IMG/VR virus record: IMGVR_UViG_3300032241_002621
Location: 1 to 36,755 of that record
DNA length: 36,755 bases
From: a virus
Strand: one strand, 5' to 3'
The notes under the pieces are model-generated. The model was not told where the DNA came from. It saw only the letters and a program-made list of their open reading frames with translations, and searched no databases. The translations under genes were made by a program, and so were the position numbers. Of this stretch, positions 1,306 to 35,882 are shown one piece after another; within the stretch, counting starts at the first letter, position 1, and every line of letters begins with the position of its first letter.

Positions 1306-3633
1306 TTATTTTGGCGTACAAGGAACTATGGCCACGCATTGGGCGTTATCATTGTCGCCTGTCAATCTGCTAATATCCAAATTAATTTTTACATCAATTG
1401 GAGCACCTTTATAAACTAGTTCGATTTCTGGTTTTTCTGGCATTACTAATTTAATTTCACTAGGAGCACCAACCAATTCAATCGTTGATGGAATTCCAAC
1501 TACTTGAATTGTGGTTGGAATTCCAGTTGCATCAATTTTAATTGAAGGAAGATTTTCTGGAACTTCAAGCTTAATCGCTTTTGGAAGATCGCTTACATCT
1601 AATTTTATTGATGTTGGTAAATTATAAGAAACTAATTCAATAGTTGATGGTATATTGTTTGCAGTGACTCTAATTTCTTGAGGAATAGGTATTTCTGGTC
1701 CAATAATTTTTACATCTGGAATAGATGGAGCTTCAATCCTTATAATTTGTGGTATGTCATGAATAACACGAATGTCAGGAATTTCTGGGACAACAAGCAT
1801 GATCTCAGAAGGTATTCCCATATCATTAGATTGAATTTCAATTGGATCTAATCCATCAGTCAAAATATCAGAAGATGCTCTAAATGGCGTTGGACTTGCA
1901 CTAGGACAACTTACTGTAACAACACAAGAAACTGTGGGTGGAGATCCCCATGTTACATTTATTGTTGGAGCAGGACCAAATTCAATCTTTGTTGGTATAA
2001 ATGGAGCAGGACCAAATACTATTTCGGTTGGTATTGTTGGTGCAGGCCCAAACAAAATTTCAGTAGGTATAAATGGAGCGGGTCCAAAAGAAATTTTGGT
2101 TGGTATAAATGGAGCAGGACCGAATTCAATTTTTGTTGGTATAGATGGTGCAGGACCAAACACAATCTTTGTTGGAATAGATGGTGCAGGACCAAACACA
2201 ATCTTTGTTGGAATAGATGGTGCAGTACCAAACACAATCTTTGTTGGCAGTGTTGGAGCGGGACCAAATTCAATCTTTGTTGGTAATTTCGATACAGGAC
2301 CAAATTCAATCTTTGTTGGAACTGTCGGAGCAGGACCAAATGCAATTTTTGTTGGTATTGTTGGAGCGGGACCAAATTCAATCTTTGTTGGTATTTTTGG
2401 AGCAGGTCCAAAATTAATCTTAGTTGGTATAGTTGGAGCAGGTCCAAACACAATCCTAGATGGTATTGGATTGGGCATTGGATCAAAATAAATCTTAGTT
2501 GGTATATAAATTGGATCAAAATAAATTTTAGTTGGTAGTGGAATTGGGGGTAAAACAAAATAAATTTTAGAAGGAATTCCACCTCCTGGGATTGGCCCAA
2601 AATAAACCTTAGAAGGAATTGATGGCATTGGTCCAAAATTAATTAATGATGGTATATTTGGTAAAGGTCCAAATGTGATTATTGATGGTAAAGTGTTGAT
2701 CTCACTTATAACAACAGAAAGAATTGTTGAAGCAATAGAACTTATATCTAAACATGGAAAAACAATTGGAGGTATTTGAGGTAAATTTGAAGGAACACAA
2801 GGGTTTGGAAAATTACATTTTGGTATTTCGGGAACTGTAGGAACTGGTATTTCAAATGTTGGTGGAGTCGTTACTGCTACCGGCTCTGTTGCCAAAATGC
2901 GTTCAATAGGAGATTGTACAATAGTACACTTAGAATTAGATATTGTTAAAATTGGGTCAATTATTGAGTTTGGTGCATATCTATGTGTTCCACTTGTTGA
3001 GCTTGTAGTAAATTCGCCATCACCAAAATCAAGTCTATAATTTGTAAATGTACCATTAATGGTTACAAAATATTGTACTAATATTCCAGTTGCTGGATTA
3101 CTGCTTACTGTATAGAAATCAAAAGTTACGTCAGGACATGTAAAGTCATCAAATATAATCGGCAATTGTTGAAGATGACGGATTCTCCAATCCAATGTTG
3201 ATGTGTCTGTTGAAAAATTTTCTCCAACAAAATTTTCAACTTTTAAAATAGCATCGACAATTTGATTATGATGTTCTGCAATCACAAAGCCACGAACTTC
3301 TGACCCTGCTAAATTATGTTTAGTGTGAGTTCCACCTAAGTTCCTGGAACATCTTTTTAATTTGTTAATTCTTTTGCTTGTTTCATCAGATTGGTCATAA
3401 TAATGGTGTTCTACGTCATCATAATAAAATAATTCGCCTTCTATATTGGCAAATCCATTGGGAGCCCAAATTTCATTTTTATCTTTTGGAACAGGTTTAA
3501 TTGATATTTCATCAGCCCAAGGGAAATTTTCTTCTGTTGTAATTGTTTCGCTCGTGTTATAGACTAAAAAAAGCGTATAATCACTATCGTAACTTTTAGG
3601 GTAAACAGGTGTTGGCGGAAAATAATTTGCCAC
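1306..3633 (-). CDS. PKD-type virion protein with about 20 tandem 12-residue repeats (fibre-like)
   Basis: 775 aa, GTG start at 3633 with AAGGA five bases upstream. Residues 1-160 match the N-terminal domain of the next two upstream genes, with the signature AEHHNQIVDAILKVENFVG. Residues about 165-265 contain a PKD-like segment (YRLDFGDGEF). From about 314 to 561 there are some 20 repeats, the last 14 close to TKIxFGPAPxIP (12 aa, 36 bases each). A second, looser series of xIPxxIxL units fills about 601-744. The C-terminus carries Cys residues (CVAIVPC). The modular build suggests a long virion-attached fibre or decoration protein. A late-type promoter lies just upstream (3665-3674). No enzymatic motif is visible. 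Confidence 0.75.
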   Translation of the reverse strand: MANYFPPTPVYPKSYDSDYTLFLVYNTSETITTEENFPWADEISIKPVPKDKNEIWAPNGFANIEGELFYYDDVEHHYYDQSDETSKRINKLKRCSRNLGGTHTKHNLAGSEVRGFVIAEHHNQIVDAILKVENFVGENFSTDTSTLDWRIRHLQQLPIIFDDFTCPDVTFDFYTVSSNPATGILVQYFVTINGTFTNYRLDFGDGEFTTSSTSGTHRYAPNSIIDPILTISNSKCTIVQSPIERILATEPVAVTTPPTFEIPVPTVPEIPKCNFPNPCVPSNLPQIPPIVFPCLDISSIASTILSVVISEINTLPSIITFGPLPNIPSLINFGPMPSIPSKVYFGPIPGGGIPSKIYFVLPPIPLPTKIYFDPIYIPTKIYFDPMPNPIPSRIVFGPAPTIPTKINFGPAPKIPTKIEFGPAPTIPTKIAFGPAPTVPTKIEFGPVSKLPTKIEFGPAPTLPTKIVFGTAPSIPTKIVFGPAPSIPTKIVFGPAPSIPTKIEFGPAPFIPTKISFGPAPFIPTEILFGPAPTIPTEIVFGPAPFIPTKIEFGPAPTINVTWGSPPTVSCVVTVSCPSASPTPFRASSDILTDGLDPIEIQSNDMGIPSEIMLVVPEIPDIRVIHDIPQIIRIEAPSIPDVKIIGPEIPIPQEIRVTANNIPSTIELVSYNLPTSIKLDVSDLPKAIKLEVPENLPSIKIDATGIPTTIQVVGIPSTIELVGAPSEIKLVMPEKPEIELVYKGAPIDVKINLDISRLTGDNDNAQCVAIVPCTPK
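1950..2690 (-). repeat. 36-base tandem coding repeat array, about 20 units
   Basis: Direct tandem repeats encode units of the form TKIxFGPAPxIP. From about 1950 to 2470 the units are a regular 36 bases. From 2470 to 2690 they vary (11-14 residues, with GGG or NP insertions). Units near 2145-2230 are almost identical in DNA, which suggests recent duplication by slippage or recombination. Older units have diverged mainly at residue 4 of the unit and at the residue before I-P. Confidence 0.9.
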
Positions 3634-34273: not shown

Positions 34274-34528
34274 ATGTACTATCTCGTCACAGGACAAAAT
34301 AATCAAACATGGAGAGAACAACTCTGGACATCTTTGATTGCTGGCCGTAAAGAAGAGGAGGTTGAGAAGTTCATCATGCCCTGGCTATTGACAGAGACAG
34401 ATGACCAGCCTGCTTTAGTTACTGTAACCACAAAGGGTTATACCATTACTGAGGCGGGTCTGGCTGAACTGGACCGTCGTGGAATTAATCACCTTGGGCA
34501 GCGTGCTGTGCCCAAGGTGAACGACTAG
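34274..34528 (+). CDS. unknown protein, first gene of a higher-GC island
   Basis: 84 aa with AAAGG nine bases upstream of the ATG. It opens MYYLVTGQNNQTWREQLWTS, then LIAGRKEEEVEKFIMPWLL, then VTTKGYTITEAGLAELDRRG, a winged-helix-like strand and helix end. G+C looks close to 45-50% by eye, against about 30% nearby, and codons such as CTG, GGC and GCC are used, unlike its neighbours. A perfect 11-bp hairpin lies in its last codons. Origin by recent transfer is likely. The protein could be a small DNA-binding or regulator protein; that is a guess. Confidence 0.6.
   Translation: MYYLVTGQNNQTWREQLWTSLIAGRKEEEVEKFIMPWLLTETDDQPALVTVTTKGYTITEAGLAELDRRGINHLGQRAVPKVND
34490..34519 (+). other. perfect 11-bp hairpin in the 3' end of a gene
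   Basis: CACCTTGGGCA (34490-34500) and TGCCCAAGGTG (34509-34519) form an 11-bp stem with an 8-base loop, within the last codons of the 84-aa gene. No T-run follows, so it is not a normal terminator. It might protect mRNA or control expression between the two island genes. Confidence 0.75.
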
Positions 34529-34796: not shown

Positions 34797-34928
34797 ATGA
34801 ATAAAGAAAACATGACAGATGTATGCCTGATAATTACTCTAATTACCATAGCACTCATCTGTCATGCATCTATAATCTATTGTGTTATTAAATTTATATT
34901 CTTTTTTTTTTTTTTTTTTCTTAAATGA
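34797..34928 (+). CDS. possible 43-aa hydrophobic peptide ending in poly-Phe
   Basis: A frame from ATG at 34797 (a second ATG is at 34812) gives MNKENMTDVCLIITLITIAL and a further hydrophobic stretch, then IFFFFFFF from the 18-T tract and a short end LK. It is a single membrane segment in type. No SD is visible and the same DNA is open on the other strand, so it may be incidental. Confidence 0.25.
   Translation: MNKENMTDVCLIITLITIALICHASIIYCVIKFIFFFFFFFLK
34811..34866 (+). repeat. perfect 11-bp inverted repeat with 34-base loop
   Basis: CATGACAGATG (34811-34821) and CATCTGTCATG (34856-34866) are exact inverted copies. It lies just downstream of the GC-rich island and could be the border of a mobile or recombined unit, or an RNA hairpin. 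An 18-T run follows 35 bases later. Confidence 0.7.
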
Positions 34929-35083
34929 TAACAATTTGTAGAACAATATTTATTGCCTCCTATCCATTCACCACATCTTTTTGAAATAAATATTTTATTA
35001 CATAAAATACATTTATACTCTTTTTTGTATTGTATAGGATTGCAAATGGTTGGCCTTAATTGTTTATAAGATTGTTTGTCTCC
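34877..35083 (-). pseudogene. zinc-finger fragment, possible homing-endonuclease remnant
   Basis: On the minus strand, a frame without a start codon and bounded upstream by TGA gives about 68 residues. They include KCILCNKIF, then a 17-18-residue gap to YCSTNC and a Lys run (KKKKKK from the T18 tract). CxxC-x18-CxxxC with an aromatic before the third Cys is the treble-clef-type zinc ribbon seen in HNH-type and related homing endonucleases. No intact N-terminus is present. A different frame upstream (NSVCEHLWASITEETNN) resembles HNH endings but overlaps the same DNA, so no joining is claimed. Best seen as decayed coding DNA. Confidence 0.4.
34902..34919 (+). repeat. 18-T homopolymer
   Basis: Eighteen consecutive T in the plus strand. 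Prone to slippage, so lengths may vary between genomes and affect both overlapping frames. Confidence 0.9.
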
Positions 35084-35164: not shown

Positions 35165-35204
35165 TGATACACATCACCTTTAACAATAAAAAAGGACAAC
35201 ATCT

Positions 35205-35396
35205 ATGGGTGCTAGTACAACAGAAGGAACAGGTCCAGGATCAGTTACAGCAGTTAAGCCGCCAATTTATAATGGCGTTGTAAAGCCAGAAAATATCGTA
35301 GTTGATGCTCTTAAAGATTATCGAATTGATATCGAAGCATCAGGCAAGATCACCGCTGATGGTGATTTAAAAACCAATGGAGCTTTGATCGTATAA
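35205..35396 (+). CDS. N-terminal part of an interrupted fibre-like protein
   Basis: 63 aa, with a good SD and late-type promoter. MGASTTEGTGPGSVTAVKPP, then NIVVDALKDYRIDIEASGKI and TADGDLKTNGALIV, where ALIV is followed by TAA (35394-35396) and then, in the same frame, GTTTLHDDVTVSSGNITADG. The repeated TADG-type pattern is that of beta-rich tail fibre stems. The stop looks like a CAA changed to TAA. It may be a broken gene, a readthrough product, or a truncated short form. The downstream part is listed separately. Confidence 0.6.
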   Translation: MGASTTEGTGPGSVTAVKPPIYNGVVKPENIVVDALKDYRIDIEASGKITADGDLKTNGALIV

Positions 35397-35552
35397 GGAA
35401 CAACAACCCTTCATGACGATGTAACCGTATCTTCGGGAAATATCACTGCTGATGGATATATTCGTAGCAATGCAGCAGGACAATTGCTTAATACACAATT
35501 TTAAGTAACCAGCGGCACTGCAACTGTAAACTCTAATACAGATACTGATATC

Positions 35553-35882
35553 ATGACTATCAGCTATACTCCAGTAAGCAATTCTTCAAAACTTTATATC
35601 GAATTTCATACAACCTATGCCATAAGCGGTAGTGGTGTTGATGATTTTCGTTCAAGTATAGTCGTTGGAAGCACAGAAATCACTTGGCGTGATCAAATTT
35701 GGACAAACGCTACTGGTGGTGGCACAAGAAGCGGAACTATTTTCCCAATCGTTGGTGTTTATGATAATGAAGTTACTACAGCACTAATCATTAAAATTAA
35801 AGCAAGACAGAATACCGCAAATGATACACTTGTAGTTGATTTAGGAAGTTGTGTTCTACGTGTTTCAGAATTTGCTCAATAA
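35553..35882 (+). CDS. C-terminal beta-rich domain of the interrupted fibre-like protein
   Basis: 109 aa from the ATG at 35553 in the same frame as 35205, after a second in-frame TAA at 35502-35504. The domain (ISYTPVSNSSKLYIEFHTTY, then DFRSSIVVGSTEITWRDQIW, GTRSGTIFPIVGVYDNEV and TLVVDLGSCVLRVSEFAQ) looks like a small jelly-roll or fibre tip with conserved Trp and Tyr positions. No good SD is seen before the ATG, which supports its being the tail of a longer gene rather than a separate one. Whether it is made is not clear. Confidence 0.5.
   Translation: MTISYTPVSNSSKLYIEFHTTYAISGSGVDDFRSSIVVGSTEITWRDQIWTNATGGGTRSGTIFPIVGVYDNEVTTALIIKIKARQNTANDTLVVDLGSCVLRVSEFAQ

What the first reader, a model, noticed from the sequence alone, without database searches (positions are those of the whole stretch)
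35205..35882. Fibre-like reading frame with two in-frame TAA codons at Gln-like positions
Seen: from ATG 35205 to the TAA at 35880-35882, one frame is coherent for 225 codons and contains TAA only at codons 64 (35394-35396) and 100 (35502-35504). Both could come from CAA by one C-to-T change, and the flanks (ALIV/GTTTL and LLNTQF/VTSGT) read on smoothly as fibre-type sequence. Both are followed by G. Most genes nearby end in TAA, so a general recoding is unlikely. Possibilities are a newly inactivated gene, controlled readthrough giving short and long fibres, or a suppressor tRNA elsewhere in the genome.
Basis: partly seen in the sequence, partly recalled or inferred. Interest (0 to 1): 0.75.

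Follow-up and report, generated by a model that had tools for sequence, protein, structure and literature searches.

The report
Phage fibre gene with two stops
A gene for a surface-binding fibre protein of a very large phage carries two premature stop codons where its relatives have ordinary amino acids, so it is most likely a recently broken gene (or a sequencing error) and not a new way of reading the genetic code.

Summary
In detail: frame 35205-35879 is coherent for 225 codons with TAA only at codons 64 and 100. All three pieces score as coding in this frame, and two or fewer stops in such a stretch is a ~5e-5 event by chance. The Gln interpretation is not supported. Three independent homologues in other phage contigs are single intact ORFs of 225, 238 and 255 aa. 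At the second TAA all three have TAT (Tyr); at the first, the only clearly aligned homologue has GAA (Glu). TAA is a normal stop here: 29 of 36 window genes end in it, often where relatives end in TGA or TAG. No ochre (UUA) suppressor tRNA was found in the window or among 120 tRNAs of three large relatives, which carry only amber (CUA) and one opal (UCA) suppressor. Neither stop is followed by unusual RNA structure, and the second cuts into the first strands of the predicted head. The protein is an accessory fibre with a TNF/C1q-like, lectin-type head. Best explanation: recent nonsense inactivation of an accessory fibre gene. Consensus error in a metagenome contig is the main rival. Interest is low.

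The parts
35205..35882 (+). Interrupted fibre gene (225 codons): N-terminal module, neck, TNF/C1q-like head
35190..35197 (+). Shine-Dalgarno-like AAAAGGAC upstream of ATG 35205
   Evidence: sequence shown
35205..35393 (+). 63-aa product expected under the standard code: conserved N-terminal module (about 30 aa, shared with tandem paralogues in relatives) and part of the neck
35394..35396 (+). First premature TAA (codon 64); GAA (Glu) in L094
35502..35504 (+). Second premature TAA (codon 100); TAT (Tyr) in L002, L090 and L094; lies in predicted strand 93-100 of the head
35505..35879 (+). Most of the head domain (TNF/C1q-like jelly roll), cut off from the start; the only later in-frame ATG is 35553 and has no Shine-Dalgarno sequence
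34880..35083 (-). Neighbouring remnant without a start codon, with a zinc-finger-like Cys pattern (YKCILCNKIFISKRCGEWIGGNKYCSTNCYH)

Best explanation
The stretch is an accessory fibre or adhesin gene of a huge myovirus-like phage that has recently been inactivated by two point mutations to TAA. Under the standard code, translation from ATG 35205 stops after 63 residues, giving the N-terminal module and part of the neck but no receptor-binding head. The head-coding part is not expressed at useful level because it lacks its own ribosome-binding site. Shown: two TAA in an otherwise intact frame; intact homologues; TAA used as a real stop in this phage; the head fold as a prediction. Inferred: that the stops are real in the phage population, that the loss is recent, and that the gene has no function left.
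For: Intact single-ORF homologues of 225 aa (L094), 238 aa (L002) and 255 aa (L090 = L091 = L092), 46-49% identical over all 225 residues. Residues at the stop sites in homologues are Tyr (TAT, 3 of 3 lineages) and Glu (GAA, L094), each one base from TAA. TAA ends 29 of 36 window genes, and in 21 gene-by-relative comparisons of gene ends TAA in the window stands where a relative has TGA (17) or TAG (4). No UUA-anticodon tRNA in the window or among the 52, 55 and 13 tRNAs of three relatives. RNA after each stop folds no better than shuffles, z -0.45 and -0.27. The second stop falls in the first strand region of the head, so the pieces are not separate domains. ATG 35553 has no Shine-Dalgarno sequence, while the gene's own start has one. 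The gene looks accessory: none of the 39 records related by the baseplate protein held a full-length homologue, two held the N-terminal module only (many are fragments). A start-less zinc-finger-like remnant lies next to it.
Against: There are no frameshifts and coding bias is undiminished after the first stop, which requires a recent loss. No closely related strain was found to show an intact sister copy or to date the loss. Two nonsense changes with no other visible lesion in one short gene is somewhat odd for a very recent event, which keeps a sequence error open.
Confidence: 0.75

Rival explanations
1. One or both TAA are errors or minority variants in the consensus of a metagenome contig; the real gene is intact.
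For: The record is a metagenome virus contig, the gene is otherwise undamaged and all homologues are intact. Both sites are one base from the homologues' codons.
Against: Two independent substitution errors in one gene are unlikely in a short-read consensus, and the other window genes compared with relatives read through to their ends.
Confidence: 0.13
2. The 63-aa truncated product is kept and used, for example as an N-terminal docking module without a head, and the downstream part is a relic.
For: The N-terminal module is attached to many different bodies, some short (118 and 133 aa), in tandem paralogues of relatives.
Against: No homologue as short as 63 aa was found; the product ends in the middle of a poorly structured neck and not at a recognisable domain end.
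Confidence: 0.07
3. Programmed readthrough or an ochre suppressor tRNA makes a full-length fibre as a minor product.
For: The frame stays coding after both stops. Relatives do carry amber and opal suppressor tRNAs.
Against: CUA and UCA anticodons do not read TAA; no UUA anticodon was found. TAA ends most genes. Two stops in series and no stimulatory structure. No homologue has a stop there. A survey of jumbo phages reports none that recode TAA (PMC13037316).
Confidence: 0.04

Closest known systems
TNF/C1q-like lectin and phage fibre heads (PLTL of Photorhabdus laumondii 9ib9, BC2L-C N-terminal domain 2wq4, cyanophage A-1(L) short tail fibre domain 8ke9)
   Same: Predicted jelly-roll head of the C-terminal part; Foldseek E 3.3e-6, 3.2e-5 and 2.9e-4
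   Different: Only 14-17% sequence identity, and the gene is interrupted by two stops
Homologous fibre genes in IMG/VR contigs 3300028393_004717 (L002), 3300046009_015179 (L090) and 3300022752_000113 (L094)
   Same: Same N-terminal module, neck and head, aligned over all 225 residues, 46-49% identity
   Different: All are single open frames; the neck of L002 and L090 is longer
Phages with reassigned stop codons (code 15, TAG to Gln)
   Same: In-frame stop codons in a coherent frame; relatives of this phage carry CUA tRNAs
   Different: The codon here is TAA, confined to one gene, while TAA ends most other genes

Membership tests
Nonsense-inactivated phage gene (pseudogene) | Intact homologues exist with sense codons at the stop sites | tested here: met
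   Tyr in 3 of 3 lineages at site 2; Glu in L094 at site 1
Nonsense-inactivated phage gene (pseudogene) | No full-length product | not testable with these tools
   Needs proteomics
Nonsense-inactivated phage gene (pseudogene) | Relaxed selection after the stops | tested here: inconclusive
   Codon bias still intact; no close relative for dN/dS
Phage with TAA reassigned to a sense codon | TAA inside many genes and avoided as terminator | tested here: not met
   29 of 36 genes end in TAA; 21 TAA ends coincide with TGA or TAG ends in relatives
Phage with TAA reassigned to a sense codon | Suppressor tRNA with UUA anticodon | tested here: inconclusive
   None in the window or three relatives; the rest of this phage's genome is not held
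Programmed readthrough | Conserved stop codon in homologues | tested here: not met
   No stop in any of the homologues
Programmed readthrough | Stimulatory downstream RNA structure | tested here: not met
   z -0.45 and -0.27
TNF/C1q-like phage fibre head | Jelly-roll head fold at the C-terminus | tested here: met
   AlphaFold2 model, residues 90-225 mostly pLDDT 70-90; Foldseek matches
TNF/C1q-like phage fibre head | Trimer and glycan binding | not testable with these tools
   Needs expression and binding assays

The most novel reading that the evidence does not exclude
A huge phage makes a full-length accessory fibre by suppressing two TAA codons in one gene, with an unseen ochre-reading tRNA or condition-dependent readthrough, while TAA ends its other genes.
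Probability: 0.03. Interest if true: 0.8.

Novelty: new member of a known kind. Interest (0 to 1): 0.15.

Why it matters
As a broken accessory adhesin it is one more example of turnover of receptor-binding genes in huge phages, with little wider weight. It would matter only if full-length protein were found, since the jumbo-phage survey read here found no phage that recodes TAA (PMC13037316).

Tried and rejected
Gln at the stop sites: rejected, homologues have Tyr and Glu. General TAA recoding: rejected. Ochre suppressor tRNA: none found in the window or in three relatives, but the rest of this phage is not held. Separate 63-aa and 109-aa genes: rejected, since homologues are single ORFs, and ATG 35553 lacks a Shine-Dalgarno sequence and would drop the first head strands. 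Readthrough structure: none. Homologues in the annotated phage collection and in bacterial genome contigs: no match. Pfam and PHROGs gave nothing useful for the fibre (one weak PHROG match of unknown function, E 0.0015). A scan for TAG read-through in relatives gave mostly what look like antisense shadow frames and was not pursued.

Full report
Observation. The frame 35205-35882 reads 225 codons with TAA only at codons 64 and 100 before its final TAA. Random sequence of this composition has on average 14.2 stops in 225 codons, and at most 2 in 5e-5 of trials; the other five frames hold 9 to 25. Codon-usage scores are by far highest in this frame for each of the three pieces.

What the phage is. 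The record is a 36,755-base virus contig and nothing more of that genome is held. It encodes a baseplate wedge protein and a tape measure protein. Its closest relatives by the baseplate protein are fragments and large contigs of up to 532,729 bases in IMG/VR, at up to 76% identity, and among deposited phages an uncultured 595-kb phage at 47%. It is a fragment of a huge, myovirus-like phage.

What the gene is. Homologues were found in five IMG/VR contigs, three independent lineages: L002, L090 (same protein in L091 and L092) and L094. Each is one open frame, of 238, 255 and 225 aa, and aligns over the full 225 residues of the window frame. None was found in annotated phages or in bacterial genome contigs. 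In L002 and L090 the gene sits in a tandem set of ORFs that share about 30 N-terminal residues and differ in the rest. An AlphaFold2 model made with four sequences is weak for residues 1-90 and fair for 90-225, a beta sandwich (mean pLDDT 65.9 overall; blocks mostly 70-90 in the head). Foldseek matches TNF-like lectins (PLTL, BC2L-C) and phage fibre domains, among them the cyanophage A-1(L) short tail fibre domain, and many phage proteins. So 'fibre-like' is right: an N-terminal, probably docking, module, a neck and a lectin-type head. Glycan binding itself is inferred.

The stop sites. At the second site all three homologue lineages have TAT, Tyr. At the first site the neck varies in length, and only L094 aligns plainly: TTG ACA GTA GAA against TTG ATC GTA TAA, so Glu. 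Both are one base away from TAA. Gln is found at neither.

Recoding. TAA ends 29 of 36 window genes, TGA 5, TAG 2. In comparisons of gene ends with three relatives, TAA in the window stands for TGA 17 times and TAG 4 times. TAA is a working stop in this phage. A survey of jumbo phages found none that recode TAA (PMC13037316). ARAGORN finds no tRNA in the window and 52, 55 and 13 tRNAs in the relatives G007 (all but its last 341 bases), G027 and G035; five have a CUA anticodon and one a UCA, none UUA. Suppressors of the amber and opal type would not read TAA.

Readthrough or split gene. The 80 bases from each stop fold no better than shuffles. No homologue has a stop at either place. The second stop lies in predicted strand 93-100 of the head, so the pieces do not match domains. 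The only later in-frame ATG, 35553, is not preceded by a Shine-Dalgarno sequence, unlike ATG 35205.

Conclusion. The simplest account is an accessory fibre gene inactivated by two nonsense changes, recently, since no frameshift and no loss of codon bias is seen. Confidence 0.75. A consensus error in a metagenome contig cannot be excluded (0.13), because no reads and no close sister strain were at hand. A used 63-aa product (0.07) and suppression or readthrough (0.04) are less likely. Next to the gene lies a start-less zinc-finger-like remnant, and in two relatives a LAGLIDADG endonuclease gene lies beside the fibre set, so this looks like a place of gene turnover.

Noticed in passing
L129:2011-2084 and 2708-2778 (G007); L161:1393-1540 and L179:11736-11826 (G027); L159:837-930 (G027): Huge-phage relatives carry two and three tRNA genes with CUA (amber) anticodon and one with UCA, although TAG is still used as a gene end there. 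Possible partial amber suppression.
   Followed up: partly
L002:7518-10674, L090:5001-7962, L085:1501, L086:598-1623: Tandem ORFs share an N-terminal module of about 30 aa (M(G/A)A(T/S)..EG.G.GS....P.I.N) with different bodies, which looks like a common virion-docking tag for exchangeable fibres or decorations.
   Followed up: partly
L002:6842-7408 (-) and L090:4326-4916 (-): LAGLIDADG endonuclease gene (PF03161, E 1e-28) directly beside the fibre gene set in two relatives.
   Followed up: no
window 34880-35083 (-): Start-less remnant with a zinc-finger-like Cys pattern next to the fibre gene, ending near a run of about 20 T.
   Followed up: partly
window 34274-34528 (+): Small ORF whose residues 20-80 are 75-78% identical to stretches at other places in G007 and G027; all three end in TAG.
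   Followed up: no
window 1306-3633 (-): 775-aa protein with many repeats of the type PTKI.FGPAP; function unknown, no Pfam match.
   Followed up: no
L155:13184-13278 and L157:15504-15586 (G027): ARAGORN reports tRNAs with four-base anticodons (CTTG, AAGG) in a 532-kb relative; could be real or misread intron-bearing genes.
   Followed up: no
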